Source: Chitinophagaceae bacterium (lineage in GTDB: Bacteria; Bacteroidota; Bacteroidia; Chitinophagales; Chitinophagaceae). Taken from it: DNA of 32,044 nucleotides. Positions 14,319 through 31,783 of this stretch are shown here, in pieces (the first letter of the stretch is position 1; every line of letters begins with the position of its first letter). The position numbers and the translations under genes are program-made. The notes below the pieces were generated by a model. The model did not search any database. It was not told where the DNA came from and saw only the letters and a list, made by a program, of their open reading frames with translations. Location: positions 1 to 32,044 of the forward strand of contig JAIXOJ010000109.1 in assembly GCA_027486835.1 (NCBI GenBank), in the 5' to 3' direction.

Positions 14319-15335
14319 TTAACGAACGGTAGAATGTCTGATGATTAACTCTGTTGTTAAGGTTTTGATGATTCCGCTTGTTTTTGGTAAATGACCATTA
14401 ATTAGGTTAAATAATAGTTCTGCAGCCGTTTCTCCAATTTTTACCATTGGCTGCGAAATGGTAGTAAGCGATGGTTCCATTAGAGCCGAAATGGGGTCGT
14501 TACTGAATCCTACAACGGCAAAATCCTCTGGAATCTTCATTCCTCTTGCTTTGATTATTTGAATAGCTTCAATTGCTGTGGGGTCGTTTATGGCAAATAA
14601 TGCATTGGGTGGATTTGGTAAATCTAGTAGGTGATTAACATGCGTATGCACATTCTCTATTCGTAAATCGTAAGGGATAATTATTTGTTCATCCAAAGGA
14701 ATATGGTATTTTCTTAGTGCAGCTAGGTATCCATTTAACCGTCTTCTACTAATGGCTAGATTGTCTGGACCTCCTAAGTGAGCTATTCTAGTTTTGCCTG
14801 TAAGAATTAAATGTTCAACAGCTCTAAAAGAACTGTCATAATCATCTACAACTACTTTAGGTGCTTGAATGTCTTCACAAACCCGATTAAAAAAAACGAT
14901 CGGTATTTCCTTTCTTTGAAATACAGTTAAGTGGTCAAAATTGGTCGTTTCTTTGGTCAGCGAAATAATGAGCCCCTCTACTTGGTTAGCCATCATAACT
15001 TCTGCATTGGCCACTTCCGTTTCGTATTTCTCATTAGATTGAGCAATAATGGTATTGTAGCCCGCCTTAGTGGCAATAGCTTGCACACCAGTAATCACTT
15101 TTGGAAAATAGGAACTAAAAAATTCGGGTACAATAATGCCAATTGTATTTGTCTTGTGCGTTACTAATGTACTAGCGAAAATATTCTTCTTGTATTCTAA
15201 TTTCTTAGCCAGTTCTAATACAGCAATCCGCGTTTGTTCATTCACAGTTGTAACGCCAGACAAAACCCTAGAAACAGTTGTTTTGGAAATGTTCAATTCT
15301 TTAGCTATGTCTTTAATCGTTACGGGCTTAATCAT
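14319..15335 (-). CDS. LacI/GalR-family transcriptional regulator
   Basis: This 338-residue protein, usual length for the family, is probably a sugar-responsive DNA-binding regulator of the neighbouring polysaccharide locus. Residues about 4-55 form the LacI helix-turn-helix and hinge: VTIKDIAKELNISKTTVSRV followed by LSGVTTVNEQTRIAVLELAKKLEYKKN. Residues about 60-330 are the periplasmic-binding-protein-like effector domain, with NTIGIIVPEFFSSYFPKVIT, VEGLIISLTKE, VVDDYDSSFRAVEHLI, RIAHLGGP, NALFAINDPTAIEAIQIIKA and FAVVGFSNDPISALMEPSLT. It is transcribed divergently from the susC-like gene across about 420 bp that hold a CG-centred palindrome, the usual arrangement for a local regulator. Whether it represses or activates, and which sugar it senses, cannot be read from sequence. 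The start is the first ATG before the helix-turn-helix. Confidence 0.93.
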   Translation of the reverse strand: MIKPVTIKDIAKELNISKTTVSRVLSGVTTVNEQTRIAVLELAKKLEYKKNIFASTLVTHKTNTIGIIVPEFFSSYFPKVITGVQAIATKAGYNTIIAQSNEKYETEVANAEVMMANQVEGLIISLTKETTNFDHLTVFQRKEIPIVFFNRVCEDIQAPKVVVDDYDSSFRAVEHLILTGKTRIAHLGGPDNLAISRRRLNGYLAALRKYHIPLDEQIIIPYDLRIENVHTHVNHLLDLPNPPNALFAINDPTAIEAIQIIKARGMKIPEDFAVVGFSNDPISALMEPSLTTISQPMVKIGETAAELLFNLINGHLPKTSGIIKTLTTELIIRHSTVR

Positions 15336-15757: not shown

Positions 15758-18700
15758 ATGCGTAAAAAGACGTTTTTGAAAATCACTCATTTCTGCTGTT
15801 TGTGTACATTATTCATGTTGTTTCCATTTGTTCGATTGGCAGCTCAAGAAGTACTAGTAACAGGTTCGGTTTTTGACACAGTAAAGAAAGCACCGCTCGC
15901 GTTCGTAAGCGTGAAAGTTTTGGGGAAAGTAGATAAAGGGGTGGCTACGACCAATTCAGGAGCTTTTTCATTGAAAGTGGCCAAATCTGCTGTAATAAGA
16001 TTTTCATTAGTAGGGTATGAATCGAAAGAGCTTTCAGTGGAATCAATCAAGAAAAATCCTACAATAATACTTAAGGCCATTGCAGCAGACTTAGATGACG
16101 TGGTGGTAGTAGGTTATGTGGCACAAAAAAGAAAGGATTTCTCCACTGCCATTTCTAATGTAAGTACTAAAAATGCCACAGAAGGTGGCTATTCTAACTT
16201 TCAGCAATTGATAGGTGGGAGAGCTGCTGGTGTTTTAGTTACGGAGAATAGTGCAGAGCCTGGTGGCGGCATCAATATTGAGGTGCGCGGTACCGGCAGC
16301 TTAAATTTTTCGACACAGCCTTTGTATGTCATTGATGGTATCCCATTTGAACAACCTAACCTTAATCTTACTTCTAATACAAATATCAGTGCAGTAGTGG
16401 GAAATAATGTTGCCAATCCGCTATCCACCATCAACCCAACAGATATTGAATCACTAGAGATTTTAAAAGACGCAGCGGCTACGGCTATATATGGAAGTAG
16501 AGGAGCTAATGGGGTCATTCTTATCACTACCAAAAAAGGGAAAGTGGGTAAAACCAAGGTTACAGTTGGCCTCAATCAGGCATATGTTATGCCTCAACGG
16601 TATGAAAAGCTATTGGATGCAAAGGACTATGCGGTATTTGCAAACGAGGCTTGGAAGTATCGTCAATCGATAGGTACCTATACACCTTCGACCTTTATAC
16701 CATATACCGATGGGGAGATTGATTCACTACAGACCTACGATCATCAAAGAGAGCTGATGCAGGTGGCCAAATCAACGGATGCGAATATTAGCATTTCTGG
16801 CGGGTCACCGATGTCAAAGTATTATTTATCTGGTCAATATTTCTATCAACCAGGAATTATACCTAATACTTCATTAAATAGGTATAGCTGTAAGTTTAAT
16901 TACGATGCAACGCTTTCTCCTAAGTTAACCATGACGGCAAATATTAGCGTTAACAATACGGAACGCAATGGCAACGCAACAGCTAATTTAATGGGGCGGG
17001 CAAAGAGTTGGTCACCAGCTTCCCCTTTTATAAACCCCGATGGCTCATTTAATCGTCTTTACAACCATTTATATGGTTACGGAAATGGTTACTACAATGA
17101 CTCTGTCTATGGATCTATTTATTACAACCCTCGATTTCCTTTAAGTACCATATTGGCTGCTAACGGAAACATAAATACCAACAATCCATTAATGTTCACT
17201 TCTTCCAGAGGTGTTAAAAATGTAAACAACTCTACACAAATTTTAGCAAACCTTAGTCTTACTTATGCATTTACAAATTCGCTAAAACTTACTGGAACAT
17301 TGGCACTGACCCAGTTTAATTCTGTCTTGCAAACCTATATTCCCATTTCAATAGTACCAACTTTTGGTACACAGCGTGGGGACGCATCCATTGGTAATTC
17401 GCAAAATAAATCTGCTTTGTATCAGTTAAACTTGAGTTACAGAAAATCGATTGGAAAACACGCTATTTCTTTAGCTGCTGTTGCTTCAGCAGAAAAGTAT
17501 ATTTCTGAAACGCAAAGTGTTGGGAGTTCAGGTTTTACATCTGATATTACTTCTTTTTATTCCATTCAATCAGGCGCTGTGCCTGGCGTACCAAAAGCTA
17601 CCTATAGTGCTTTTCAATTGGTTTCATCGGTACTGCAGGGGGTTTATTCCTATCAAGACAAATACATTCTTAATCTATCAGGTCGTTTTGATGGTACTTC
17701 AAAATTTGCTGATAACAATAAGTATGGGTTTTTCCCTTCAACAGGATTGGCTTGGAAGGTGGATAAGGAAAAATGGTTTAAAATCAACAAGTCTTTGGTA
17801 AATGAACTGAAACTGAGGGTGAGTTTTGGAATAGTTGGTAATCAAGGTATCAACCCTTATTCCACAATGGCCACTTTGTCTAGTAACTACATTGTGTTTG
17901 GCAATAGTACAGCTAACATCGGGTATTATCCAACGATATTGGCTAACCCAGGATTGAAATGGGAAAAAACACAGTCATTAAATAGTGGGATTGATATTGG
18001 TTTGTTTCAAAACAGAATCAATGTAACTGTAGATGCCTACAGAAGGTTTACAAAAGACTTATTGGTAAACGTTACCCCTCCACTTACATCTGGTTTCACA
18101 ACTTACACCGCCAACTTAGCAACCATGCGTAATGAAGGTTTAGAATTTTCCCTTGAAGCTAGGGTAATAGAAAAAAAGGATTTTCGCTTGTCATTTGGTG
18201 GGAATATAGCGTTCAACTGGAATAAAGTGGAGAAATTAACTGGTTCAGCAGGTGAATATTATAATCCACCAGCAGGGGCGATTGGTACAGGCGGTTATAT
18301 AACAAGGATAGAACCAGGCAAACCTGTAGGTCAATTTTTTGGTTACAAGTCAATCGGGATATGGAACGATTCCTCTATCAAAACCAAGCCTACTACTTTT
18401 ATGCCATCAGCAAAAGAAGGCGACAGAAGGTATGCTGATTTGAACAACGACAACTTATTGTCTGATGCCGATAGAACATATATCGGTAGTGCATTGCCGA
18501 AATACTTTGGAGGGTTTAACATAAATATTTCATACAAATCATTTGACCTTTCTTCCTTTTTTAGCTATTCTATAGGTAGTCAAATATTCAATACTTACCA
18601 GATTACTTATGGTAACATGTCTGGAAATGCCAACATCAGAAAAGATGTTTTTGATAAACGCTATCGGGTTATTTATCCTGATACAGACACTAAATTAATC

Positions 18701-19033
18701 GACGCTATACGGGCAAATAATTTAAAGACCAATGTATCTGTAGCAGGCTCAACCCTTGAGGCTAGAGAAGCAACAGACTACTATATTGAAGACGGATCTT
18801 ATATGCGTTGTCGAGACATTACCATTGGTTATCGGTTACCTTATAAGTTGGTAAAAAAAGCAGGTTTGTCTTCCATGAAAGCATACATAAACCTACAGAA
18901 TGTATTTATGATAACGAAGTATTCGGGCCTAAATCCAGAGGTGAGTTCCAGAGGTGGGTTAGTAAGAGGAGTGGATGATGGTTCTGCACCTTTGTCAAGA
19001 GGGCTTAGAATAGGGTTTAACGCTAATTTTTAA
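15758..19033 (+). CDS. SusC/RagA-family TonB-dependent outer-membrane transporter
   Basis: This 1091-residue protein imports oligosaccharides across the outer membrane with energy from TonB. A signal peptide (residues 1 to about 29, ending LAA-Q) is followed by a carboxypeptidase-regulatory-like beta domain (about 30-112: TGSVFDTVKKAPLAFVSVKV). Next comes the SusC signature DDVVVVGYVAQKRKDF near 113-128, where VAQ replaces the more usual GTQ. The plug domain (about 120-265) includes LIGGRAAGVLVTENSAEPGG, IEVRGTGSLNFSTQPLYVID and LEILKDAAATAIYGSRGANG. The rest is the beta-barrel (for example LKWEKTQSLNSGIDIGLFQN and YYIEDGSYMRCRDITIGYRL), ending in the aromatic FNANF. Length is normal for the family. 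It is the first gene of the PUL and lies 17 bases before its SusD partner. Confidence 0.96.
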   Translation: MRKKTFLKITHFCCLCTLFMLFPFVRLAAQEVLVTGSVFDTVKKAPLAFVSVKVLGKVDKGVATTNSGAFSLKVAKSAVIRFSLVGYESKELSVESIKKNPTIILKAIAADLDDVVVVGYVAQKRKDFSTAISNVSTKNATEGGYSNFQQLIGGRAAGVLVTENSAEPGGGINIEVRGTGSLNFSTQPLYVIDGIPFEQPNLNLTSNTNISAVVGNNVANPLSTINPTDIESLEILKDAAATAIYGSRGANGVILITTKKGKVGKTKVTVGLNQAYVMPQRYEKLLDAKDYAVFANEAWKYRQSIGTYTPSTFIPYTDGEIDSLQTYDHQRELMQVAKSTDANISISGGSPMSKYYLSGQYFYQPGIIPNTSLNRYSCKFNYDATLSPKLTMTANISVNNTERNGNATANLMGRAKSWSPASPFINPDGSFNRLYNHLYGYGNGYYNDSVYGSIYYNPRFPLSTILAANGNINTNNPLMFTSSRGVKNVNNSTQILANLSLTYAFTNSLKLTGTLALTQFNSVLQTYIPISIVPTFGTQRGDASIGNSQNKSALYQLNLSYRKSIGKHAISLAAVASAEKYISETQSVGSSGFTSDITSFYSIQSGAVPGVPKATYSAFQLVSSVLQGVYSYQDKYILNLSGRFDGTSKFADNNKYGFFPSTGLAWKVDKEKWFKINKSLVNELKLRVSFGIVGNQGINPYSTMATLSSNYIVFGNSTANIGYYPTILANPGLKWEKTQSLNSGIDIGLFQNRINVTVDAYRRFTKDLLVNVTPPLTSGFTTYTANLATMRNEGLEFSLEARVIEKKDFRLSFGGNIAFNWNKVEKLTGSAGEYYNPPAGAIGTGGYITRIEPGKPVGQFFGYKSIGIWNDSSIKTKPTTFMPSAKEGDRRYADLNNDNLLSDADRTYIGSALPKYFGGFNINISYKSFDLSSFFSYSIGSQIFNTYQITYGNMSGNANIRKDVFDKRYRVIYPDTDTKLIDAIRANNLKTNVSVAGSTLEAREATDYYIEDGSYMRCRDITIGYRLPYKLVKKAGLSSMKAYINLQNVFMITKYSGLNPEVSSRGGLVRGVDDGSAPLSRGLRIGFNANF

Positions 19034-19050: not shown

Positions 19051-21144
19051 ATGTTCAATAATAAAAAGTATCTCATTTATTTAGCATTCTTAATGGTACT
19101 CGGCTCCTGCAAAAAGTTTTTAGAAGAAAACCCCAAAGGCTTGATAACGAATACCAATTTTTATCAGACAACTGATGATGCGATTGCTGCAGTCAACGCA
19201 GTTTATACTACCCTCCGTCCAGATGTTGCCTTAGGTTTACCTGGCATTTATTTAACCGAAATGATTTCGGACGATGGCACCATGTCGCCTACAGCTACCC
19301 AAGTAGGGGAAAGGTTGGAACTGGAAAATATGATCTACAGTTCCCAGCACGGCATCATCAAAACGGTTTGGACAAATGCTTACATCTCCATCAATTCGGC
19401 AAATACGGTATTGAAATATGTGTATGATAGTAGCAAAATAAGACCCAACATAGTTAGAAGGGTACGTGGTGAAGCATGTTTTATAAGGGCATTTAATTAT
19501 TTCAGGTTGGTGCAGTTGTACGGTGATGTGCCCTTGGTATTGACACCTTCTGAAATCGGGGTGTCCAATCTTTCGCCAGCTAGGACTCCAGTTAAGGTAG
19601 TTTATGACAGTATTATCAGCGATTTGCAATATGCAGAGCAGAATTTAGATGATAGCTATGATTACAACAATGCTAAAAATGGTGGTCGAGCAACAGCCGC
19701 CGCCGCAAAAGCGCTGTTAGGAAAGGTATATCTAACCATGGCGGGTTATCCTTTGAATGATGCAAGTAAATACCAGATGGCAGCAGATAAACTCAATGAA
19801 ATTATTGTCAACAAAGGCACATACGATTTAGACTTGAACCCAAGCTATTCTGGCATCTTTAGTGCGGCCACTTCGGTCAAAGCAGCGGATAAAGAGCGGA
19901 TTTTTTATTGTAGGGGCACCAGTGGAATGGCACCTGATTACCAAGCTTTCACAAGGATGAAGTCCACTTATTTACAGTTTAAATATGCGGTACCTTCAAA
20001 GGAATATATACCCTATACTACTAATGCTACAACGGACAAATATTTTTCTTTGTCTGGAGGTATAAGGTTGTCATCGATAGAAGTAGATGATGCTATTACC
20101 AGTGCCATACCAATTGGCTTCTCTTTCAATTTTGGAGGTGTGTTATATGACTCGTTTTACATGAGTAGCAATGGTTTTATTAGTTTCAGAAGCAGGAGTA
20201 ATGCGCCACCCAATATTTCTACTGCAACCGACCCCGTAGTGGGGCCATTGATGGACAATCTGAACGGCACAGGTGGAACAGCCAGTTATTTGCTTTCTGG
20301 CTCTGCCCCCAACAGGGTATTGACCTTGGAATGGGCCAACTGGCGATGGAGAACAGGAACCACCGTAGCCAACAACATTAGTTTCCAAGCACAATTGTAT
20401 GAGGATGGCAGGATTCAATTCAACTACAACTGCCCAACTGGTCCAGTAAACAATGCTGCTTCGGCAATTGGGGTACGGTATCCCTCCTCTTACTTGGCAT
20501 TCAAAAACACCAACACTACAGGAGGTTTTAGTTGGGTGGCTAGCAATACGGGTTATTCTTCCAGTGTAAATAAGTTTCAATATAGCAACGGTGATTCTAC
20601 AACCGAATTAATCATCAACCAAAACTTACGAGCAGTTTATGAAGTTTCCGATTCAAGGCGGACTACATCCACTGATTTCTTGGGTACAGTAATCAATAAA
20701 TACAACGATGTGACAAATACTGGCTATACAGATAATGCCGACGATTTTATCTGGCTACGGTATTCGGATGTTTTGTTGATGTATGCAGAGGCTTTGATGG
20801 AAATAGGGGGTGTTACGAATATGGACAATGCTTTGGCAGTTGTCAACTCCATCCGAAAAGCACATGGAGGAACGGCGATTCAGGATTTGAAATACACGGG
20901 ACAAGATGATTTGCGCCAAAAGATTAGGTTGGAGCGTAGGCGGGAATTGGCATTTGAAGGCCACCGTTGGTATGATCTAAAACGATGGAACATCATTGTA
21001 CAGACCATTAAGTCCAACCTCTCCTTTCAGTACAGTCGTCCAATGTCGTACTACGATTTCTTGACTGATAATGTAAAATTGTTGCCCATTCCTTATGCTG
21101 AGTTGGTCAACAATCCTAATCTAACGCAAAATCCTGGATATTAA
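19051..21144 (+). CDS. SusD/RagB-family surface glycan-binding lipoprotein with an inserted domain
   Basis: This is the glycan-binding lid partner of the SusC-like transporter, anchored as a lipoprotein: the signal peptide ends LGSC with Cys20 as the lipidated residue. The SusD helical repeat scaffold is visible at the N-terminus (FYQTTDDAIAAVNAVYTTLR; RGEACFIRAFNYFRLVQLYG), and the canonical C-terminal block is present (DDFIWLRYSDVLLMYAEAL; RLERRRELAFEGHRWYDLKR). At 697 residues it is long for the family, usually about 500-600. The excess maps to residues about 322-515, which read as an all-beta domain (AIPIGFSFNFGGVLYDSFYM, SSNGFISF, YEDGRIQFNYN, SAIGVRYP) of a type otherwise seen in secreted Bacteroidota proteins. 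Removing it leaves about 505 residues. The insert may add a second glycan-binding surface; that is inference. Confidence 0.94.
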   Translation: MFNNKKYLIYLAFLMVLGSCKKFLEENPKGLITNTNFYQTTDDAIAAVNAVYTTLRPDVALGLPGIYLTEMISDDGTMSPTATQVGERLELENMIYSSQHGIIKTVWTNAYISINSANTVLKYVYDSSKIRPNIVRRVRGEACFIRAFNYFRLVQLYGDVPLVLTPSEIGVSNLSPARTPVKVVYDSIISDLQYAEQNLDDSYDYNNAKNGGRATAAAAKALLGKVYLTMAGYPLNDASKYQMAADKLNEIIVNKGTYDLDLNPSYSGIFSAATSVKAADKERIFYCRGTSGMAPDYQAFTRMKSTYLQFKYAVPSKEYIPYTTNATTDKYFSLSGGIRLSSIEVDDAITSAIPIGFSFNFGGVLYDSFYMSSNGFISFRSRSNAPPNISTATDPVVGPLMDNLNGTGGTASYLLSGSAPNRVLTLEWANWRWRTGTTVANNISFQAQLYEDGRIQFNYNCPTGPVNNAASAIGVRYPSSYLAFKNTNTTGGFSWVASNTGYSSSVNKFQYSNGDSTTELIINQNLRAVYEVSDSRRTTSTDFLGTVINKYNDVTNTGYTDNADDFIWLRYSDVLLMYAEALMEIGGVTNMDNALAVVNSIRKAHGGTAIQDLKYTGQDDLRQKIRLERRRELAFEGHRWYDLKRWNIIVQTIKSNLSFQYSRPMSYYDFLTDNVKLLPIPYAELVNNPNLTQNPGY

Positions 21145-21239: not shown

Positions 21240-23519
21240 ATGATATACGATGAAAACAAAGAAGTAAGACAGTTGAAACAAGAGGCCTTGCAAGCAGACT
21301 TGGCCATTGTAGGTGGCGGTCTTGCGGGTGTTTGTTCTGCAATTACTGCCGCAAGACAAGGATTGAAAGTTGTGTTGGTACAAGATAGACCCGTTTTGGG
21401 CGGGAATGCCTCAAGTGAAGTTCGGCTTTGGATATTGGGAGCTACTTCCCACATGGGTAACAACAATCGTTGGGCTAGGGAAGGAGGCGTTGTGGATGAG
21501 CTGATGGTGGAGAATATGTATAAGAACAAAGAAGGCAACCCGGTGATCTTTGATTCCATTTTATTAGACAAGGTCATTAGCGAACCCAACATTACCTTGC
21601 TCCTCAATACCGCAATTTATGAAGTAACAAAAAAAGATGCTGATACCATTTCAGGCGTAATAGGATTTTGCAGCCAAAACCAAACCACCTATAGCGTTAC
21701 TGCCCCTCTTTTTTGTGATGCATCGGGCGATGGCATCGTAGGGTTTTTAGCAGGTGCTGCCTTTAGGATGGGGGCTGAATCCAAGGAAGAGTTCGGAGAA
21801 AAGTTTGCCCCTTCTAAAGAATATGGCGAATTGCTAGGGCATTCCTTGTACTTCTATAGTAAGGACGTAGGTAAGCCCGTACAATATATCCCGCCCTCCT
21901 TTGCCTTGGATGATATAACTAAAATACCTAGGTTCAAAAGCTTTAACGCAAAAGATTTCGGCTGTAGGTTATGGTGGATAGAATATGGTGGAAGATTAGA
22001 CACCATCACCGATACAGAAACAATAAAGTGGGAATTATGGAAAGTGGTGTACGGGGTATGGAATTACATTAAGAATTCTGGCAACTTTCCAGAAGCCGAA
22101 AACTTGACGCTAGAGTGGGTAGGTATGATTCCAGGCAAAAGGGAAAGCAGACGGTTTGTAGGGGATTATATGCTCACGCAGCAAGATATCGTTGAGCAGC
22201 GAACCCACGAAGATGCCGTGGCTTTTGGAGGGTGGAGCATCGACCTGCATCCTGCTGATGGCGTATTCAGTGAAAAGCCTGGCTGCAACCAATGGCATAG
22301 TAAGGGTATTTATCAGATACCCTACCGGACATTGTACAGTAGGAACATCAATAACTTGTTTATATCAGGCCGCTTGATCAGCGCAACCCATGTTGCTTTT
22401 GGTTCCACAAGGGTCATGGCAACAAGTGCTTATGTAGGTCAATCCATTGCAGTTGCAGCAAAAATTTGTAAGGAACACCATCTTTTGCCAAAGCAGTTGC
22501 TAACTGAAGGCTTGATTGGCCAATTGCAGAACCAATTATTGAGCACGGGTCAATATATCCCCGGATATACTTTAAAAGACCCTAAGGATTTAGTAAAAAC
22601 CGCTACATTAACGGCTACAAGTGAGCTGAAACTGAGCGAACTGCCTTTTAGTGAAGCATTAAGAAAACCATTGGACAACTCTGTCGCACAGATGGTTCCA
22701 GTGAACAAAGGCAAATTGCCGGAAATGATTATTCACGCACATGCTGAAACGAATACCAGTTTGACGGTACAATTGAGGTTGAGTGGGAAATTAGGCAACC
22801 AAACGCCAGATGAGATTGTGCAGACGATTGTAGTATCAATACATCCGAATAGAAATTGTATCTCAATTCATTTTGATGTGGATTTGGATATTGCGCAATA
22901 TGCTTTCCTTACCATCCTCAAGAACCCAGAAGTTTCTTTGTACTATTCTGATTGGCGCATCACAGGATTGCTTTCAGTGTTCAACTCCATCAATCCAGCG
23001 GTTTCCAATTATGGAAAACAAGAGCCAAAGGAAGACATTGGCGTTGACGGATTTGAGTTTTGGTGTCCAAAACGTAGGCCAGAGGGTCATAACATTGCCT
23101 TGAAATTATCCAAACCGATTGATTTATTTAGTGCAGAGAACATCCGTAACGGTGTGGATCGGCCTGTAAATGCACCCAATGCTTGGGTGGCCGATATGAA
23201 GGATGAAAATCCTTCCATATCCATTAAATGGCCTAAACAACAAACCATCAAATCCATCGATTTATTTTTTGATGCAGACTACGATCATCCCATGGAAAGT
23301 GTGCTGATGGGGCATCCAGAAAATGTAATGCCCTTTGTAGTCCGTGATTATACTATCAAGGACGATGTAGGTAATATCCTTTTCTCGAAAAAAGGAAATT
23401 ATCAAACTATCAATAAAGTGGTGTTTGATTCTCCAGTAACCACAGCTTCGCTAACGGTGGAAGTAGCACATCCTTCCCCAACCACGCCTGCAGCAGTGTT
23501 CGCTGTTCGGGCATTTTAG
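21240..23519 (+). CDS. FAD-dependent oxidoreductase with C-terminal beta (F5/8 type C-like) domain
   Basis: This 759-residue protein has an N-terminal dinucleotide-binding fold, ADLAIVGGGLAGVCSAITAA, with G-x-G-x-x-G at residues 25-30, then RPVLGGNASSEVRLWILGA. This matches the PF12831-type FAD-dependent oxidoreductases common in Bacteroidota sugar loci, some of them misnamed xanthan lyases. A second FAD-contact block is NNLFISGRLISATHVAFGST near 370-390. The catalytic part seems to end near 415. The remaining roughly 340 residues are mostly beta, and the last 125 or so (NAWVADM...ISIKWPKQQTIKSIDLFFD) resemble a galactose-binding F5/8 type C fold. No signal peptide is visible, so it should act in the cytoplasm, after the symporter encoded next. 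The oxidised substrate is unknown. It is 95 bases after the SusD gene and probably in its operon. Confidence 0.85.
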   Translation: MIYDENKEVRQLKQEALQADLAIVGGGLAGVCSAITAARQGLKVVLVQDRPVLGGNASSEVRLWILGATSHMGNNNRWAREGGVVDELMVENMYKNKEGNPVIFDSILLDKVISEPNITLLLNTAIYEVTKKDADTISGVIGFCSQNQTTYSVTAPLFCDASGDGIVGFLAGAAFRMGAESKEEFGEKFAPSKEYGELLGHSLYFYSKDVGKPVQYIPPSFALDDITKIPRFKSFNAKDFGCRLWWIEYGGRLDTITDTETIKWELWKVVYGVWNYIKNSGNFPEAENLTLEWVGMIPGKRESRRFVGDYMLTQQDIVEQRTHEDAVAFGGWSIDLHPADGVFSEKPGCNQWHSKGIYQIPYRTLYSRNINNLFISGRLISATHVAFGSTRVMATSAYVGQSIAVAAKICKEHHLLPKQLLTEGLIGQLQNQLLSTGQYIPGYTLKDPKDLVKTATLTATSELKLSELPFSEALRKPLDNSVAQMVPVNKGKLPEMIIHAHAETNTSLTVQLRLSGKLGNQTPDEIVQTIVVSIHPNRNCISIHFDVDLDIAQYAFLTILKNPEVSLYYSDWRITGLLSVFNSINPAVSNYGKQEPKEDIGVDGFEFWCPKRRPEGHNIALKLSKPIDLFSAENIRNGVDRPVNAPNAWVADMKDENPSISIKWPKQQTIKSIDLFFDADYDHPMESVLMGHPENVMPFVVRDYTIKDDVGNILFSKKGNYQTINKVVFDSPVTTASLTVEVAHPSPTTPAAVFAVRAF

Positions 23520-23612: not shown

Positions 23613-25313
23613 ATGGTACAACTAGATTTTATCGTTATGGCAGTTTTTGCGCTGCTAATATTTGCCATTGGTCTTGCCTTTACCAAAATGGGAAGTAAGA
23701 ATGGACAAGCCTTTTTCGAAGCTGGTGGAGAAACGCCTTGGTGGATAAACGGGCTTTCCCTTTTTATCAGTTATTTCTCGGCTGGCACGTTCGTGGTTTG
23801 GGGTTCTATTGCCTATAAGTTTGGTTTGGTAGCCAATGCCATCCAATTGACCATGGCCATTAGTGGAGGAATTGTTGCCTTTTTTATTGCAAAGCGATGG
23901 AAAAAAACAGGCGTTAAAACCGCTGCAGAGTACATAGGCCGTCGATTTGGTCTAAAAACCCAACAGTTTTATACCTATCTCGTGCTTACGATGAGCATGT
24001 TTACAACAGCTTCCGTTTTATATCCTGTTGGGAAAATGGTGCATGTGGCAACCCCGTATTCCCTAAATGCATGTATAGTCATTATTGGGGTCATCATCGT
24101 GTTATATACTGCTGCGGGTGGTTTGTGGGCGGTGTTGGTAACTGATGTGGTACAGTTTGTTATACTAACGGCTTCCGTATTGATTGTTTTGCCAATAGCC
24201 TTAGAAACGGTGGGAGGATTCGATAAATTTACTAATCAAGCTCCTGTCGATTTTTTCAAGCCATTCAATAACGATTATACGTTTGGTTTTATGCTCGCCT
24301 TTATTGTGTACCAAACCATGTACATAGGCGGCAATTGGAGCTATGTTCAACGATACACAAGCGTGAAGGATGAAAAGGATTCCCAAAAAGTAGCTTTCAT
24401 CTTCACGATACTCTATTTGGTAAGCCCCATTTTATGGATGTTGCCACCCATGATATACAGGGTCATCAATCCTCATTTACAGGGTTTGGAAGCAGAGGGG
24501 GCCTATATGATGCTTTGCCAAAAAATATTACCAAGTGGGCTAATAGGTTTAGTGCTTGCAGGGATGATTTCGGCCACTTCAAGCAAGGCAAATACCACTA
24601 TCAACCTTGCCGCAACGGTCTTTGCCACAGATTTATACAAAAACCTGATTCGACCTAAAGCAAGCGAGAAAGAATTGATTTTGATGGCGAGGCTGTTTAC
24701 CCTATTGTTTGGGGCTGGCACGGTGGGCATTGCCATACTGATTCCAGAAGTTGGGGGGATAGTCGATTTTGTTTTGAAGATTGCTTCCATAGCGGGCGGA
24801 GCCTTGTTCGCACCAATTATTTGGAGTTTATTTTCAAAACGGCAAACTACTTTTTCCACCGTTTCAGCTACTGTGACCGCACTGATTGTAAACATTTGGT
24901 TTGAAATGTTGATGCCTATGTTGATGCACGAGAAACTAAGTAGAACCGTTGAAACCGTCTTAGGTCAGGCAGTCCCCTTAGCGGTCTTGCTTGGGTTTGA
25001 GTTGTATTATCGTTCAAAGGGAATGGTACATGATAAAGCAGGGGTATTTGAGCAAACCGAGCCTCAAAATGTTGTAACACTATCTAAGGAACACCATCGT
25101 GATGCAGAAGAGCAAAACATATTTGGTATCAGGGTAATTGCTTTGTCAATGGCTGTTGTAAGTATAGGCATCGTTACATTAGGAGTGATGGCTACCCTTT
25201 ACGGCAAAGTGGTAATGGGGGTAGGTGCTATCATCTTCCTCGTATCTATATTGGTTTGGTTGGCTGCAAACAAAAGGAAGAAATTTATTGACCAAACGAT
25301 TTTGCATGGTTAA
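23613..25313 (+). CDS. Sodium:solute symporter (SSS family), probably for a sugar or sugar derivative
   Basis: This 566-residue inner-membrane protein has about 14-15 transmembrane helices and belongs to the SSS (solute:sodium symporter) family. Visible features are the N-terminal helix LDFIVMAVFALLIFAIGLAF, the FFEAGGETPWWINGLSLFIS block (family pattern: a loop before helix 2 with W-W-x-x-G-x-S), AAEYIGRRFGLKTQQFYTYL, YTAAGGLWAVLVTDVVQFVI (helix 5 region) and LVLAGMISATSSKANTTINL (sodium-site helix 8 region, S/T-rich). Placed between a cytoplasmic-looking FAD enzyme and a periplasmic glycosidase-like protein, it most likely carries the released mono- or oligosaccharide across the inner membrane. 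Substrate specificity cannot be deduced. It starts 93 bases after the FAD gene stop, with a repetitive leader. Confidence 0.92.
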   Translation: MVQLDFIVMAVFALLIFAIGLAFTKMGSKNGQAFFEAGGETPWWINGLSLFISYFSAGTFVVWGSIAYKFGLVANAIQLTMAISGGIVAFFIAKRWKKTGVKTAAEYIGRRFGLKTQQFYTYLVLTMSMFTTASVLYPVGKMVHVATPYSLNACIVIIGVIIVLYTAAGGLWAVLVTDVVQFVILTASVLIVLPIALETVGGFDKFTNQAPVDFFKPFNNDYTFGFMLAFIVYQTMYIGGNWSYVQRYTSVKDEKDSQKVAFIFTILYLVSPILWMLPPMIYRVINPHLQGLEAEGAYMMLCQKILPSGLIGLVLAGMISATSSKANTTINLAATVFATDLYKNLIRPKASEKELILMARLFTLLFGAGTVGIAILIPEVGGIVDFVLKIASIAGGALFAPIIWSLFSKRQTTFSTVSATVTALIVNIWFEMLMPMLMHEKLSRTVETVLGQAVPLAVLLGFELYYRSKGMVHDKAGVFEQTEPQNVVTLSKEHHRDAEEQNIFGIRVIALSMAVVSIGIVTLGVMATLYGKVVMGVGAIIFLVSILVWLAANKRKKFIDQTILHG

Positions 25314-25516
25314 GTCGGGGTTTCAAAAGCTGATTGTATTCTACAATAGTTGACCTACTTGTCGGAACAGTACAATTACTGTCGAGTGCGCTTCAAATTG
25401 GATTGTTTGTTAGTTTTTTGTCCTTTTTAAAATCCAATACAGTGTTTGGTGCCACAGTCTTAGATGTAAACACTACATTCATTAACTGATAGTTTTTGCT
25501 TTCAAAATTTGCCATT

Positions 25517-26554
25517 ATGAAATATTGCGCACGAATAATAACAGCGATTGCCGTGTTTTTTCTATTTGGAAAAAATACTACTCACGCACAAGACATAGAC
25601 GTAGAAAGTTGGATCCGGCCTGTACCTGCAACTGCTAAATTTGGGTTGGATAGTTTTATGGTATGGTGCGGCAGTTGCGTCAAGGGCAACGATGGGAAAT
25701 ATTATCTATTCTATAGTCGTTGGCCAAGGAGTAGTAAACACGAATCTTGGGTTACAAAAAGCGAAGTAGCCGTGGCTGTCGCCAACGAACCTACGGGTCC
25801 TTTCAAACATGTAAAAGTGGTATTGCCCACAAGGGAAAAAACATTTTGGGATGCCGAAGTAACCCATAATCCCACGGTTCAAAAGTTTGGCAAAAAGTAT
25901 TATTTATACTATATGGGCAACTATGGCAATGGCGAATGGTGGAACCATCGCAACCACCAACGCATTGGCGTAGCTGTGGCATCTTCCCCTTTGGGTCCTT
26001 GGAAACGTTCTGATAAACCTATTATCGATACTTCTTTTCAGAGCTTCGACCATGTTATGGCTTCCAATCCTGCTGTAACCAAACGCCCCGATGGAAAATA
26101 CCTAATGATTTACAAAGGGGTGGGCAATGGCAAAATGCCCTTTGGTGGCAAAGTGCTTCATGGTGCTGCAATTGCCGATAAGCCCGAAGGTCCCTTTACC
26201 AAATTGCCCAATAGGATTTTTGTAAAAGATACCGTTCAATTCGCTGCGGAAGATCCTTTTATTTGGTTTCAGGAAGGAAAGTATTGGGCCATCGTAAAAG
26301 ACTTTAAAGGCAATTTTACCCATGCTGGCTTAAGCTTGGCCTTGTTCGAATCGATGGACGGGCTGGATTGGAAACCTGCCAAGCATGTATTGGTCACCAA
26401 AACAGAAATTCCTTGGGAGACCGGAACGAAACAAGTAAAGAAATTGGAACGTCCGCAGTTGTATATAGAAAATGGCATCCCCAAAGTATTATTCTGTGCT
26501 GTTTATGATGGAGAGGATAACTATAATGTGGCCATCCCTTTAAAAGTAAAATAG
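25517..26554 (+). CDS. Secreted five-bladed beta-propeller glycoside-hydrolase-like protein
   Basis: This 345-residue protein has a signal peptide (MKYCARIITAIAVFFLFGKN..., cleavage at HA-Q) and should be periplasmic or extracellular. The repeated pattern of a short beta blade with G-K-Y-Y-L-F-Y-type strands is typical of the five-bladed propeller glycosidases (GH43/GH117/GH130-like superfamily): VKGNDGKYYLFYSRW, HNPTVQKFGKKYYLYYMGNY, ASNPAVTKRPDGKYLMIYKG, AEDPFIWFQEGKYWAIVKDF and ERPQLYIENGIPKVLFCAVY. I cannot assign the CAZy family or the catalytic residues by eye. The start at 25517 (ATG) is preferred over the TTG at 25496, which would add seven residues before the signal peptide. It lies 203 bases after the symporter gene. 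Confidence 0.8.
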   Translation: MKYCARIITAIAVFFLFGKNTTHAQDIDVESWIRPVPATAKFGLDSFMVWCGSCVKGNDGKYYLFYSRWPRSSKHESWVTKSEVAVAVANEPTGPFKHVKVVLPTREKTFWDAEVTHNPTVQKFGKKYYLYYMGNYGNGEWWNHRNHQRIGVAVASSPLGPWKRSDKPIIDTSFQSFDHVMASNPAVTKRPDGKYLMIYKGVGNGKMPFGGKVLHGAAIADKPEGPFTKLPNRIFVKDTVQFAAEDPFIWFQEGKYWAIVKDFKGNFTHAGLSLALFESMDGLDWKPAKHVLVTKTEIPWETGTKQVKKLERPQLYIENGIPKVLFCAVYDGEDNYNVAIPLKVK

Positions 26555-26787: not shown

Positions 26788-29247
26788 ATGAAAAGAATGT
26801 TACTATTAGCAATGATAGGTCTGGTACAATCCATTGCTGGAAATGCGCAGACTGAGAAAAAGCCAATTTGCATTAGTGGTATTTACCCCAGTTTGGCCTA
26901 CTTTAACCACGAAGGTGAATGTGGCACAGGGGCTGTTGTGCCTTGGGCAGATCGATTATGGGTTATAACCTATGCCCCTCATAAAGCCTTTGGTTCTTCT
27001 GACAAATTGTATGAAATTACGCCTGAGTTGAAACAAATCGTTAGACCAGAAAGTATCGGGGGGACGCCAGCAAACAGAATGATTCATAAAGAAAGCAACC
27101 AGTTGTTTATTGGTCCTTATGTAATAGATAACAAAAGGAATGTAAGGGTTATCCCTATTTCCGATGCACCGGGCAGGTTGACCGCAATGACGCGAAGTAT
27201 TTCCGATCCTGAAAACAAAGTGGTCATTGGGACTATGGAAGCTGGCTTTTATGAAATAGATACCAAATCCCTGGCCGTAAAAACCTTGTATAAAGATGGT
27301 AACCAATTAAAAAAAGAAGGTGTAAACCCTTCGTTTCATTCAGGCTTGTTGTTGGGTGCGCATGGTAAAGGGTTGTATGAAAGCCAGGGTGTGATGGTAT
27401 TTGGAAACAATGGGGAAACAGGTGCGGAAAAATCGCCGAATCAACGGATTCCTGCAGGTTCATTGTCGGAATGGGATGGAAAGAATTGGAAATTGATCCG
27501 TAGAAATCAGTTTGCGGAAGTGACAGGACCTGGTGGAATCATGGGCAATGAAAAAAACACCGACCCCATTTGGGCAGTTGGTTGGGATTATAAATCAGTC
27601 ATCTTGGCACTAAGGGACAACGGGAATTGGACTTTTTTCCGACTGCCAAAAGCAAGCAATACCTATGATGCCGCTACAGGTTGGAATACCGAATGGCCGA
27701 GAATAAGAAACGTAGGTGATTCCAACAAAGCCAATTACCTAATGACTATGCACGGCATGTTTTGGCATTTCCCCAAAACTTTTACCGCCAGCAATACTTC
27801 TGGCATCCGCCCTGCAACTTCCTATCTGAAAGTAATGGGCGATTTTACCAAGTGGAACAATCAATTGGTGTTTGGTTGCGATGATGCTGCCCAAAGTGAG
27901 TTTTTAAACAAGCGGGCGGCAATTGGTGGTATAGCCGGTCCAGGACATTCGCAATCCAATCTTTGGTTTACCGACTTAAATAAACCAGACAACAATGGAA
28001 CAGCCAACGCAACAGGTGCAGTTTGGTTGCAGGAACAAGTAAAAACCAATGAAACTTCTGAACCTATGTTGTTTTCAGGTTGGGAACACAAATCTTGTTG
28101 GTTAAAAAACGACGGGGATAACAAAGTGGATTTTACCCTTGAAGTAGATAAGGCGGGAAACAATAATTGGTCAACCTTAAAAACCATTACAATTCCTGCA
28201 AAGTCAGCCCAATTGGTTACTTTCTTGCCCTCCGAAATAGGGGAGTGGATAAGGGTTAAGTCAAGTGGCGAAACATTAGCGGATGCCTCTTTTGTATATT
28301 CCAATTCGGAAAAAAGAAAACCCGTTTCAGATGCGATGTTCAAGGCATTGGCAACAGTGGACAGCAAGGAATCTATTGGCGGTTTGTTGTACAGTCTTGG
28401 CAAGGATAAACGTGCATTGGGAATTCTAGCAAATCAAACTAAGAACGGTGCGACCCTTGAAAATGGGTATTACGAAATGGATGACCAAATGAAAATAACC
28501 CTCAAACATGACACGGCTACTGCCTCTTTCATTCAAAAGCATGTAGCCATACCTACCAAAGTATTGTCTGTGGAAGCGGGTTCTTATTTGATTGTAGATG
28601 AATTGAAAAGACGTTGGAGATTGCCATTAGGGGATGAAGCATACAAGGATTTTATGGAAAAAGCCGAAGTGCGCATTTGCAGGGAAGTGGCAACCGAAAG
28701 GGCTTTGTTCAGTGTAAGCGGTACTTTTTATGAATTGCCAGCAGAAAATGCGGATGGCTACGCAAAAATCCGCCCCATTGCTACCCACCATTTTAAAATC
28801 AATGATTATGTTTCTTACCGTGGGTTGCTGGTAATGACGGGTTTAACTACAGAACCAGGAAAGAATGAACATGTGTTTCAGTCTGATGATAAGAAATGCA
28901 GCGTTTGGGCTGGGGCTATTGATGATTTATGGAAATTGGGCAAGCCTGTTGGGAAAGGCGGCCCTTGGGTGAACACAGCGGTGCAAGCAAATACACCGTC
29001 CGACCCGTATTTATTCAGTATTTATGACCATAAAACCCTCACGCTTTCTCACGCTTCTGCCGAGCCAGTAACCTTTAAAATCGCCTTTGACCCAACGGGC
29101 GATGGTTCTTGGATTACTTACAAAACTGTAGAAGTGAAACCAAAAGAAAAACAGATCGTCCGTTTCCCCAAAAATGTTCAAGCCAGATGGATACGTTTTA
29201 AAACAGATAAAGCAACCCAAGCAACCACATGGTTGGAATATCAATAA
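26788..29247 (+). CDS. Secreted protein of unknown function, propeller-like N-terminus and duplicated C-terminal module
   Basis: This 819-residue protein has a signal peptide (MKRMLLLAMIGLVQSIAGNA-Q) and no membrane anchor or T9SS tail, so it is probably periplasmic. The N-terminal part (about 30-320) shows repeated short beta strands such as DRLWVITYAP, KLYEITPELK, NQLFIGPYVI, NKVVIGTMEAGFYEID and DPIWAVGWDYKSVILAL, suggesting a beta-propeller. The rest contains an internal duplication: residues about 319-508 (MHGMFWHFPKTF...EPMLFSGWEHKSCWL...EWIRVKSS) and about 640-819 (VSGTFYELPAEN...DPYLFSIYDHKTLTL...RWIRFKTD) align across most of their length. I do not recognise the family. PUL context suggests glycan binding or cleavage; seven-bladed propeller polysaccharide lyases are one analogy, but no lyase motif is visible. 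Confidence 0.8.
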   Translation: MKRMLLLAMIGLVQSIAGNAQTEKKPICISGIYPSLAYFNHEGECGTGAVVPWADRLWVITYAPHKAFGSSDKLYEITPELKQIVRPESIGGTPANRMIHKESNQLFIGPYVIDNKRNVRVIPISDAPGRLTAMTRSISDPENKVVIGTMEAGFYEIDTKSLAVKTLYKDGNQLKKEGVNPSFHSGLLLGAHGKGLYESQGVMVFGNNGETGAEKSPNQRIPAGSLSEWDGKNWKLIRRNQFAEVTGPGGIMGNEKNTDPIWAVGWDYKSVILALRDNGNWTFFRLPKASNTYDAATGWNTEWPRIRNVGDSNKANYLMTMHGMFWHFPKTFTASNTSGIRPATSYLKVMGDFTKWNNQLVFGCDDAAQSEFLNKRAAIGGIAGPGHSQSNLWFTDLNKPDNNGTANATGAVWLQEQVKTNETSEPMLFSGWEHKSCWLKNDGDNKVDFTLEVDKAGNNNWSTLKTITIPAKSAQLVTFLPSEIGEWIRVKSSGETLADASFVYSNSEKRKPVSDAMFKALATVDSKESIGGLLYSLGKDKRALGILANQTKNGATLENGYYEMDDQMKITLKHDTATASFIQKHVAIPTKVLSVEAGSYLIVDELKRRWRLPLGDEAYKDFMEKAEVRICREVATERALFSVSGTFYELPAENADGYAKIRPIATHHFKINDYVSYRGLLVMTGLTTEPGKNEHVFQSDDKKCSVWAGAIDDLWKLGKPVGKGGPWVNTAVQANTPSDPYLFSIYDHKTLTLSHASAEPVTFKIAFDPTGDGSWITYKTVEVKPKEKQIVRFPKNVQARWIRFKTDKATQATTWLEYQ

Positions 29248-29326: not shown

Positions 29327-31783
29327 ATGAAGAGGGTTTTAGCTGCGTTCTTGTTATTTTTCGTAGGCGGTTTGGATGTTGGGTTTGCACAAACAACCCT
29401 GTTTTCGGTCACGCCCAAAAGCAGTAACAAAACATTGCCTACTACCTACCTTGCACCCAATATTTCCTTGAAAAGAGGGTTTGCTTTTGGTGGGCGTATC
29501 GTTTCTGGAGCAACTTGCATGGAAGCACCAAGCCGACTATTTACGGATTCGTTGATGGGGTACTTTAGGGATTCGATTTTGTCTAACGTAAAGAAAACCG
29601 CCAAAATCAGCTTTGCCGTCCAAGCGAATAATGGGTACAAATTGCTTCTGGATTCCATTACCTGTCAGTTCTCGGCCAATTTGAGCGGGGTGAAGTATCG
29701 AATGGCTTTTTCTGTGGATGGAGGAACTACGGTCAATTTTGTTGATAGTGATTATGTGGTTCCCGTTGTAGTCAATTGTGCTGCCAGCACGATTCCTGTG
29801 CAAAGTGCGGTATGCAATTATTTGATTCAAAGCAGCCAATCATTGGTGGTTTATTGCTATTTCTTCAATGCGCCAAAGCAAACAGAGATCAATATTTTCA
29901 GTGCCGCTATCAAAGGTTGTGTGCTTCCCGTCTCTGCTGCCAAAGATTGTAATGGCAAGGAAAATATTTGGTTAAGCCCACCACCATTGAGCAAATACCA
30001 ACTATTATATAATGAGGATTTTTCCAGCGGAACTACACCTTCTAAAATAAACACGAAAAATTGGGTAACCCGTGGTTATGGTGGTTTTGGTGGATTGATG
30101 AAGGATACCAATGTTTATTTGGCCGATGGGATGCTGCATGTAAAATATACCAAACTGGATACGAACTATATCGGCGGCGGAATCCAGAGCTTAGACCAAT
30201 TCCATTATGGGTATTATGAAACCTACATGAAAACCTACGTAGGTGCAGCTAATTTTCACCAGACATTTTGGTTGATTGGTACGAACAACAATTGGAAAAA
30301 AGATTCCTTGCCTGTAAACAATACGCAAGTGGAAATAGATGCGTTGCAAATGGATTCCTACATATCCAAGCCTTCTTTTGCATCTTATTTCAGAGCCACC
30401 AATGCTTTCGCAATGTACAACCATGCCCCCGTGCCATTGTATGCCGATGCCTTGCCCTACATTAGGGAAACAGCTTCTGGAAATGCTTCGGTGTACGACA
30501 CTGGTTGGATTAAAGTAGGCATGGAATGGTTGCCCGATAGCATCAAACTGTATTACAACGACACATTGCGGCAGTTGTTTCTTATTCCCAAACCTTGGCA
30601 GCACCATGCACAGTTGGGTGTGCAGTTCAGTGGGTTGCCTACCCCACACGGCTACAGTACTTCCATGACGGCAAATATGTCTTGTCCACCCAATGCGGAA
30701 ATGTTGGTGGACTGGTTTAAGTTCTATGCCCCAACGGCAGCACAAGCCAATATGAATTTTATCAGCGAGGGTGGTTTTGACAATGACTTACGACCTCGAA
30801 ACCTGCACCGTCCCCTTTGTTGGATTAATGCACAAGCCTACGATATTCAAGGAGCGGCAATAAAATTAGATACCATTGCCACATCTATAGACACGGTAGT
30901 TTTTCATTCTGGACGGGCCAGTTTGAAACATGATCATACCAAACCCTATAAAACAGCCAGCCGACAAATCATGAACAACATTGCCAATGGAAAATATACC
31001 CTTTCTGCTTGGGTACGATGCAGTGGGGGGCAGAATCTTTGCCAGATGCGTGTGTTAACGGGTGGTTCGTTGTTTTCAAAGAATATTCCGTCCACAAATG
31101 GTAGTTGGATTCAATTGTCACAAGACGTGACTGTTCAAAATAACCGTGCGGTCATTGAGTTTTATTCAGATGCTTTAGCTCGAAATACCCTCCACATAGA
31201 CGATGTCTTTTTTATCCGTCTGCCTCAAGTCTCATTGCCTATTTCTTTTTTGGATGTAAATGCTAAAAATAAGGGTAACCATATCATCATAAGTTGGCAA
31301 GTAGCTGAGGATAAGGAAGTGCTGAATTATGAATTAGAGTGCAGTGAAGATGGTGTTCATTTTCAAAAAATAGCCACTGTGCTTGCCCATAATAGGTCGG
31401 TTTACAGTTATGAGGATAAGAAGCCTTTTAATAAAAATATCAATTTATACTATCGAATCAAACTAATTGCAAAGCATGACCATGAGCAATACAGCAATGT
31501 AGTACAGGTTGCTCAAAAGGGAAGCCATACCAATGTTTTGCAACTGTATCCCAATCCAGACAAAGGTGTTTTGTATGTTGCTGCGCCTCAATTAATCGAT
31601 AATCAAAGCTTTGACCTTAAGATGATTTCTTTTAGTGGCAAAGTTGTATGGCAACAAACAGGAATAAAGCCTTTGTCAAATAGGTTTACTATCAATACAT
31701 CATTCCTCATCAGTGGAAACTATTATTTAGTGGTGACGAATAGTAAAGGGGAACAATATCAAGCTGTTTTTTCTAAGGAATAA
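29327..31783 (+). CDS. GH16-like T9SS-secreted protein with Glu-to-Gln change at the catalytic motif
   Basis: This 818-residue protein has a signal peptide 1-21 (cleavage GFA-Q), then an N-terminal beta domain about 25-215. A GH16 concanavalin-like domain follows at about 225-470 (LLYNEDFSSG, GGIQSLDQFHYGYYETYMKT, FHQTFWLIG, VGMEWLPDSIKLYYND, MLVDWFKFY). Next are a CBM4/9-like domain about 475-635, an FN3-like module about 640-725 and a T9SS sorting domain about 735-818 (LQLYPNPDKG). The GH16 active-site motif is normally E-x-D-x-x-E; here it reads E336-I-D338-A-L-Q341, so the acid/base glutamate is glutamine. GH16 members cleave beta-glucans, agar, porphyran or carrageenan. This one may be inactive, a binding protein, or use another acid. 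The ATG at 29327 is chosen because it opens the signal peptide; an upstream ATG at 29174 overlaps the previous gene and adds 51 unrelated residues. Confidence 0.85.
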   Translation: MKRVLAAFLLFFVGGLDVGFAQTTLFSVTPKSSNKTLPTTYLAPNISLKRGFAFGGRIVSGATCMEAPSRLFTDSLMGYFRDSILSNVKKTAKISFAVQANNGYKLLLDSITCQFSANLSGVKYRMAFSVDGGTTVNFVDSDYVVPVVVNCAASTIPVQSAVCNYLIQSSQSLVVYCYFFNAPKQTEINIFSAAIKGCVLPVSAAKDCNGKENIWLSPPPLSKYQLLYNEDFSSGTTPSKINTKNWVTRGYGGFGGLMKDTNVYLADGMLHVKYTKLDTNYIGGGIQSLDQFHYGYYETYMKTYVGAANFHQTFWLIGTNNNWKKDSLPVNNTQVEIDALQMDSYISKPSFASYFRATNAFAMYNHAPVPLYADALPYIRETASGNASVYDTGWIKVGMEWLPDSIKLYYNDTLRQLFLIPKPWQHHAQLGVQFSGLPTPHGYSTSMTANMSCPPNAEMLVDWFKFYAPTAAQANMNFISEGGFDNDLRPRNLHRPLCWINAQAYDIQGAAIKLDTIATSIDTVVFHSGRASLKHDHTKPYKTASRQIMNNIANGKYTLSAWVRCSGGQNLCQMRVLTGGSLFSKNIPSTNGSWIQLSQDVTVQNNRAVIEFYSDALARNTLHIDDVFFIRLPQVSLPISFLDVNAKNKGNHIIISWQVAEDKEVLNYELECSEDGVHFQKIATVLAHNRSVYSYEDKKPFNKNINLYYRIKLIAKHDHEQYSNVVQVAQKGSHTNVLQLYPNPDKGVLYVAAPQLIDNQSFDLKMISFSGKVVWQQTGIKPLSNRFTINTSFLISGNYYLVVTNSKGEQYQAVFSKE

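What the first reader, a model, noticed from the sequence alone, without database searches (positions are those of the whole stretch)
29327..31783. GH16-like protein with the catalytic acid/base glutamate replaced by glutamine
The GH16 motif E-x-D-x-x-E reads E336-I-D-A-L-Q341 (codon caa at 30347-30349). The nucleophile Glu and the Asp are kept, so only the proton donor is lost. The rest of the fold, the CBM-like domain and the T9SS tail are intact, so this looks like a retained surface glycan-binding pseudoenzyme or an enzyme with a non-classical acid/base. It is the only candidate classical endo-acting enzyme in the locus, which makes the question important for what the PUL does.
Basis: partly seen in the sequence, partly recalled or inferred. 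Interest (0 to 1): 0.72.

Follow-up and report, generated by a model that had tools for sequence, protein, structure and literature searches.

The report
Surface protein from a disabled sugar-cutter
A lake bacterium carries a surface protein built on a sugar-cutting enzyme whose key catalytic residue has been swapped and kept swapped by evolution, so it probably grips a glycan rather than cutting it; close relatives are altered at other positions.

Summary
The ORF at 29327-31783 reads E336-I-D-A-L-Q341, no other ExDx(x)E occurs in the protein, and profile alignments put Q341 on the GH16 acid/base glutamate. It is not a sequencing error: five sequences from four same-genus genomes have Q (codons CAA and CAG). 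Synonymous divergence between window and orthologs is saturated, while the GH16 domain stays 79-88% identical (N-terminal part 42-59%, tail 29-44%).

The new part is context. The protein belongs to a clade of ten GH16-like proteins (support 100/99), found only in this genus in our samples, sharing an undescribed N-terminal domain. All ten have an altered motif, in three ways: ExDxxQ (5), QxQxxE (4), ExQxxE (1; both glutamates kept). Their nearest relatives (moderate support), short GH16+CBM proteins without this domain, are intact: EIDGFE. That fits catalysis having stopped mattering in a secreted binding protein.

Best reading: a T9SS-secreted, non-catalytic glycan-binding component of a PUL, analogous to insect beta-glucan recognition proteins. 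An active enzyme with a non-classical acid/base is less likely but not excluded: E336 and D338 are strictly kept. The GH16 core could not be modelled; binding and activity are untested. New variant of a known kind.

The parts
29327..31783 (+). GH16-like T9SS-secreted protein, 818 aa, acid/base Glu replaced by Gln
29327..29392 (+). probable signal peptide (residues 1-22), judged by eye; supports start at 29327 rather than the longer ORF start 29174
29393..29968 (+). N-terminal domain (residues 23-214), no Pfam match; its profile (E up to 0.001) matches 10 places in 13 same-genus genomes, each in front of a GH16-like domain with an altered motif
29969..30748 (+). GH16-like domain (residues 215-474); most conserved part of the protein (196 of 260 columns invariant in 5 sequences)
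30332..30349 (+). active-site motif E336-I-D338-A-L-Q341 (canonical ExDxxE)
30347..30349 (+). Gln codon caa at the acid/base position (CAA or CAG in the orthologs)
30749..31222 (+). CBM_4_9-like domain (residues 475-632; Pfam match 519-605 below cut-off)
31544..31759 (+). T9SS C-terminal sorting domain (residues 740-811)
14319..15335 (-). LacI-family regulator of the PUL
15758..19033 (+). SusC-like TonB-dependent transporter
19051..21144 (+). SusD-like protein
21240..23519 (+). FAD-dependent oxidoreductase (PF12831)
23613..25313 (+). sodium:solute symporter
25496..26554 (+). GH43-like enzyme (Pfam); best PDB names include 3,6-anhydro-alpha-L-galactosidase (GH117; that family label is recalled)
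26788..29247 (+). 819-aa protein of unknown family; no PDB match at E up to 0.1, no NCBIfam match at E up to 0.1, weak F5/8C-like end

Best explanation
The protein is a GH16-derived, non-catalytic glycan-binding protein exported by the type IX system as part of a SusCD polysaccharide-utilization locus. Shown: the acid/base Glu is Gln in all five sequences that cover the site, under purifying selection; the clade shares an extra N-terminal domain; clade members differ in which motif residues they have lost. Inferred: the concave GH16 cleft still binds the target glycan, with the Gln amide replacing the acid as a hydrogen-bonding group, so the chain is held and not cut; the CBM-like domain adds avidity and the T9SS tail puts it on the cell surface. 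Cutting would be left to other enzymes, for example the short EIDGFE GH16 proteins encoded elsewhere in the same genomes.
For: Q in 5 of 5 sequences covering the site, codons CAA (2) and CAG (3); dS of the GH16 domain saturated in all four window-ortholog comparisons while dN is 0.08-0.13. 196 of 260 GH16 columns invariant against 28 of 186 in the tail. Clade of ten N-terminal-domain proteins with support 100/99; motifs EIDALQ/EVDALQ (5), QNQLFE or QNQLYE (4), ENQCFE (1); nine of ten lack one catalytic Glu; nearest rows EIDGFE at 89/81 (motif columns left out of the tree). The N-terminal domain matches 10 places in 13 genomes, 10 of 10 before a GH16-like domain with an altered motif. A further change near the end of the domain, W to Q or M at residue 433, is seen in 10 of 10 clade members against W in 6 of 6 canonical rows with a letter there (whose printed numbers are one too high). 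PUL order conserved in a second genome. Precedents: an inactivated GH16 mutant (ZgLamA E269S) still binds laminarin with Kd 1.78 uM (PMC4606783, passages); [quoted passage not shown]
Against: E336 and D338, useless to a binder as a catalytic pair, are invariant in the Q clade, although most of the domain is invariant too. The clade member ENQCFE keeps both glutamates, so it has lost only the Asp and may not be dead. No binding data. The GH16 core could not be modelled. Rv0315 shows that an inactive GH16 need not bind glycan. The ten proteins are one clade, so the association with the N-terminal domain is one event plus later changes, not ten independent tests; L032 has an altered motif without the domain.
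Confidence: 0.64

Rival explanations
1. It is an active retaining glycosidase or transglycosidase with a non-classical acid/base. E336 is the nucleophile, D338 tunes it, and either D343 (i+2 on the same strand), the substrate, or an outside acid or base replaces E341, as in plant myrosinase, where Gln stands at this position and ascorbate helps.
For: E336 and D338 invariant in 5 of 5 Q-type sequences; residue 343 is D or E in 5 of 5. H311, W315 and the GGG and YGYYE segments of the canonical relatives are kept (whose printed numbers are one too high). The Gln of Arabidopsis myrosinase is stated in a passage of PMC9632345, and the title of the ascorbate paper appears in its reference list.
Against: D or E at 343 is found in all ten clade members, including the five that keep E at 341, so it is not a matching gain. 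Four proteins of the same clade lost the nucleophile and the Asp instead. Residue 433 lost its Trp.
Confidence: 0.2
2. A scaffold or adhesin: the GH16-like domain is kept for fold or protein-protein contact on the cell surface, without glycan binding.
For: Rv0315 is an inactive GH16 protein that does not bind laminarin (PMC4606783, passages). Of the two QNQ-type proteins scanned, one (4818 aa) has FN3 repeats and a T9SS tail and the other (1313 aa) F5/8C-like domains.
Against: Sits in a SusCD locus whose gene order is conserved; a CBM-like domain follows directly; the GH16-like domain is the most conserved part.
Confidence: 0.13
3. A sequencing or assembly error, or a decaying pseudogene.
For: Draft, fragmented genomes.
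Against: Same state in five sequences from four genomes with different codons; open frames without internal stops (L010 is cut by the contig end); strong purifying selection.
Confidence: 0.01

Closest known systems
Insect beta-glucan recognition proteins / GNBPs (GH16_4 relatives that lost catalytic residues)
   Same: GH16-derived, catalytic residues lost, extra N-terminal region or recognition domain added, glycan recognition (PMC6403176 passages; PMC6827312 passages)
   Different: Here bacterial, T9SS-secreted, encoded in a PUL; our N-terminal domain has no Pfam match and no significant PDB profile match and was not compared directly with the insect one; only the acid/base is lost in this protein
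GH16 galactan-active branch (porphyranase B 3juu, kappa-carrageenase, endo-beta-galactosidase 1ups)
   Same: Among the best PDB profile hits; motif and the YGYYE and FW segments align. The same list also holds beta-glucanases and laminarinases
   Different: Distant; acid/base Gln; His in the HQxFW segment; subfamily not assigned here
Short EIDGFE GH16 + CBM proteins of the same genus (L027, L025/L029)
   Same: Nearest relatives, GH16 domain 37% and 32% identical to the window, followed by a CBM-like domain
   Different: Intact motif, no N-terminal domain; no tail match to our model and no T9SS tail in the Pfam scan of the L025 protein; PF00722 above cut-off
Rv0315, inactive GH16 of Mycobacterium tuberculosis
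   Same: Inactive bacterial GH16 (PMC4606783 passages)
   Different: Its Glu-176 is described as a conserved catalytic residue, so its inactivity is put down to an open groove that does not bind laminarin

Membership tests
GH16 (CAZy family, fold and descent) | Sequence similarity to GH16 across the domain | tested here: met
   Profile A1 (ten rows, intact relatives included) against PDB: 25 hits at E up to 0.01, best 1.9e-10; A2 against A4 99.8%. The single protein is weak: Pfam below cut-off, PDB best E 0.001.
GH16 (CAZy family, fold and descent) | Beta-jelly-roll fold | tested here: inconclusive
   AlphaFold2 failed on this domain: pLDDT 28 alone, blocks of 19-40 in the full-length model.
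Catalytically competent GH16 enzyme | ExDxE or ExDxxE with both glutamates | tested here: not met
   ExDxxQ in 5 of 5 sequences; no other such motif in the protein.
Non-catalytic GH16-derived glycan-binding protein | One or both catalytic residues lost in a stable lineage | tested here: met
Non-catalytic GH16-derived glycan-binding protein | Binds a glycan without cutting it | not testable with these tools
   Needs purified protein
T9SS cargo | C-terminal sorting domain plus signal peptide | tested here: met
   PF18962 35.5 bits against 27, TIGR04183 24.6 against 23; the signal peptide was judged by eye only
PUL member | Conserved neighbourhood with a SusC/SusD pair | tested here: met
   in L010/L082 (one contig) the order SusD end, FAD oxidoreductase, symporter, GH43-like, a different gene, GH16-like is kept; SusC itself lies outside that contig

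The most novel reading that the evidence does not exclude
A glycoside hydrolase lineage in which Gln has become the working residue at the acid/base position: E336 and D338 stay strictly conserved because the protein still forms a glycosyl-enzyme intermediate, acting on a substrate with a good leaving group or transferring glycosyl units to an outside acceptor, a GH16 counterpart of myrosinase, while its paralogs explored other rearrangements of the same motif.
Probability: 0.14. Interest if true: 0.75.

Novelty: new variant of a known kind. Interest (0 to 1): 0.47.

Why it matters
Loss of a catalytic residue is rare in GH16 outside the animal and fungal subfamily 4 (0.7-1%, PMC6827312 passages). 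Here one bacterial genus holds a clade in which nine of ten proteins lack a catalytic glutamate and the tenth lacks the motif Asp, with intact near relatives in the same genus. That offers a compact natural experiment on how an endo-glycanase turns into a binding protein, and a warning that PUL substrate predictions should not count such proteins as enzymes. The pairs of intact and altered paralogs make the idea directly testable.

Tried and rejected
AlphaFold2 of the GH16 domain with five rows: pLDDT 28, unusable. Full length with seven rows: mean 49.4; ten-residue blocks reach 76 in the N-terminal domain, 80 in the CBM-like part and 86 in the tail (with weaker blocks in each), but only 19-40 in the GH16 core. 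Foldseek of that model against PDB gave broad all-beta hits (FN3 tandems, CBM-bearing enzymes, phage tail tips, toxins) with TM-scores of 0.08-0.14 on the query in the 50 rows listed, so I draw nothing from it. Which residue sits near Q341 in space therefore stays open.

Viral-contig scans to deepen the alignment gave one relative, L074; three further scans gave none. The A4 query was rejected as too variable.

Sequencing error and alternative motif placement were rejected. D343 as a gained substitute was not supported. Literature: a search for six phrases such as 'inactive GH16' found 0 papers. Broader searches combining GH16 or inactive glycosidases with pseudoenzyme, binding, T9SS and PUL terms found 51, 22, 32, 127 and 5 papers, of which only the top 15, 15, 12, 12 and 5 were listed; by title and start of abstract none of those listed describes such a bacterial clade. 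Rv0315, a single inactive bacterial GH16, was among them. The library lacks most subscription papers, so this is not proof of absence.

Full report
OBSERVATION. The frame 29327-31783 codes for 818 aa and contains E336-I-D-A-L-Q341-M-D-S-Y; the Gln codon is caa at 30347-30349. No ExDx(1,2)E exists elsewhere in the protein. Pfam places GH16 (14.7 bits, cut-off 22), CBM_4_9 (21.4, cut-off 25.9) and the T9SS tail (35.5, cut-off 27), so the GH16 and CBM calls are sub-threshold for the single protein; its best PDB match is porphyranase B at E 0.001. A ten-row profile of the family, which includes intact relatives, finds 25 PDB sequences at E up to 0.01, best porphyranase B at 1.9e-10, with the motif lying on ELDIQE. 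Profile-profile comparison of five Q-type rows with seven intact relatives gives 99.8% and aligns EIDALQ with EIDGFE.

NOT AN ERROR. A genome-contig scan returned five loci, all titled Chitinophagaceae MAG contigs. Four of them cover the motif (L009-L012, three genomes); L013 does not reach it. With the window this makes five sequences from four genomes, all E-I/V-DALQ. In all four window-ortholog comparisons the synonymous divergence of the GH16 domain is saturated, yet amino-acid identity is 79-88% and dN 0.08-0.13; identity is 42-59% in the N-terminal part and 29-44% in the tail. The Gln codon is CAA in two sequences and CAG in three. Invariant columns: 196 of 260 in the GH16 domain, 92 of 158 in the CBM-like part, 60 of 193 in the N-terminal domain, 28 of 186 in the tail. 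The GH16-like domain is thus the most constrained part of a protein that lacks the canonical acid/base.

FAMILY AND TREE. The window domain alone found relatives at E up to 1e-4 in 8 of 394 genomes of the family. The ten-row profile at E up to 1e-8 found them in 8 of 396 genomes of the order, 5 of 395 of the class and 5 of 395 of the phylum, and at E up to 1e-5 in 7 of 13 of the genus (the samples overlap and each count includes the window's own genome). In a tree of 25 domains (nine short or divergent rows of 34 dropped; motif columns left out) ten proteins form a clade at 100/99: five E-I/V-DALQ, four QNQLFE or QNQLYE (nucleophile and Asp replaced, acid/base kept), one ENQCFE (Asp replaced, both glutamates kept). 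The EIDGFE proteins L025 and L027 are their nearest rows at 89/81, which the tool does not star. The order of the three groups inside the clade is weakly supported (89/73), so whether the Asp-to-Gln change arose once or twice is open. The Q lineage keeps exactly the residues that the QNQ lineage lost, and the reverse. The simplest account is therefore an intact ancestor with at least two separate lines of damage; this is inference, as no ancestral states were computed.

ARCHITECTURE. The N-terminal domain (residues 22-214) has no Pfam match and no significant PDB profile match (best E 0.11). In 13 genomes of the genus its profile (four Q-type rows, E up to 0.001) finds 10 places, in 5 genomes, and all ten are the ten clade members. 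Among 15 near family members of the genus, entered by hand, N-terminal domain and altered motif coincide in 10, neither is present in 4, and 1 (L032, NIDMFE) has an altered motif without the domain; Fisher P 0.004, which ignores common descent. More distant GH16 rows were left out of that tally. L034 is a fragment at a contig end, but its frame begins about 33 residues before the GH16 match, so the domain is absent there. All ten clade members also have Gln or Met where six of six intact rows with a letter have Trp, near the end of the domain (residue 433, whose printed numbers are one too high).

CONTROL WITHIN THE GENUS. PF00722 at E up to 0.01 gave 41 matches in 11 of 13 genomes. I looked at 31 loci (26 and 5, four of which one search lists again). 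24 show an intact ExDx(x)E by regex, and L091 has ETDIME. Four are altered: L109 (the ENQCFE protein again) and three orthologs of a second, separate lineage, L039, L105 and L107, reading DFNYNE. Two fragments (L093, L104) were not resolved. The DFNYNE protein (998 aa in the own genome) has a GH16 domain 34% identical over 130 positions to a short intact EIDINE protein on the same contig C7. So damage is not general in the GH16 proteins of this genus; it lies mostly in large multidomain proteins that have short intact relatives, L032 (537 aa, not among the 31) being an exception.

LOCUS. Upstream lie LacI, SusC, SusD, an FAD oxidoreductase, a sodium:solute symporter, a GH43-like enzyme whose best PDB names include anhydro-galactosidases, and an 819-aa protein. 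From SusD on the order is kept in G285 (L010/L082), where a SASA-type acetylesterase takes the place of the 819-aa gene; in L009 the 819-aa gene is present. A partial ortholog (L013) is followed by a GH3 gene. The window contig ends 261 bases after the gene, in what reads as an inverted repeat, so genes beyond are unknown. All four genomes with the Q-type protein also have an EIDGFE GH16 gene elsewhere (G135's is a fragment).

MECHANISM. I favour a surface glycan-binding protein: cleft kept, chemistry switched off, export by T9SS. Binding by a disabled GH16 is precedented: ZgLamA E269S binds laminarin with Kd 1.78 uM (PMC4606783, passages). In insects, GH16 glucan-recognition proteins combine lost catalysis with an added N-terminal region or recognition domain (PMC6403176, passages). 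The rival of an active enzyme with Gln, as in myrosinase (PMC9632345, one passage and a reference title), keeps some weight because E336 and D338 never vary in the five Q-type sequences. That E-to-Q mutants of GH16 acid/bases are usually nearly dead is recalled and comes from no call. D343 cannot be dismissed geometrically (that i+2 residues on a strand face the same side is general knowledge), but it is D or E in all ten clade members, so it did not arise with the loss.

LIMITS. No structure of the GH16 core, no subfamily assignment, no substrate. The counts are few and come from draft genomes of one genus. The clade member ENQCFE keeps both glutamates, so 'inactive' is best supported for nine of ten.

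Noticed in passing
L045:12420-15413 (own genome C7:48419-51412), L105, L107: Second, separate lineage of degenerate GH16: proteins of about 1000 aa (998 aa in the own genome, which has Golvesin_C and Big_5 domains) reading DFNYNE at the motif, related to a short intact EIDINE protein on the same contig.
   Followed up: partly
L032:718-2331 (G340:C184): GH16 protein of about 537 aa with a lipobox-like N-terminus (by eye) and NIDMFE at the motif (nucleophile Glu to Asn), without the N-terminal domain of the clade.
   Followed up: partly
L083 (own genome C7:17532-31985): 4818-aa T9SS protein with the QNQLFE GH16-like domain near its N-terminus and 11 FN3 stretches; encoded near a GH2 gene, a GH43-like gene (by eye) and an intact EIDGFE GH16 gene.
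   Followed up: partly
L027 (own genome C7:14960-16288): The intact EIDGFE gene has an open frame of 443 aa whose first ATG lies inside the GH16 domain; an alternative start or an assembly fault is possible.
   Followed up: no
L082:2185-3006 against window 26788-29247: Between the GH43-like and GH16-like genes one genome has a SASA-type acetylesterase where the window has the 819-aa protein: a cassette swap inside a conserved PUL.
   Followed up: partly
window 31955-32044: The contig ends in an apparent inverted repeat (ggtgcataaaagtttttcg ... cgaaaaacttttatgcacc), perhaps a MITE or REP-like element that broke the assembly. Seen by eye.
   Followed up: no
L012:3500-3750: Tandem repeats of about 20 bases (GGTAACCCATTCGTAACAAA-like) just downstream of the Q-type gene; L009 has a different repeat at the same place. 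Seen by eye.
   Followed up: no
window 1103-11026: 3307-aa giant protein with RCC1-like and FG-GAP-like repeats by eye, and a C-terminal match to the tail of the GH16-like protein.
   Followed up: no
window 13012-13719: Transposase gene (DDE_Tnp_1; DUF4372 matched only from profile position 43), apparently shortened, next to the PUL.
   Followed up: no
L074 (IMGVR_UViG_3300049001_000027): A contig filed as viral carries an intact EIDGFE relative of this GH16 group.
   Followed up: no
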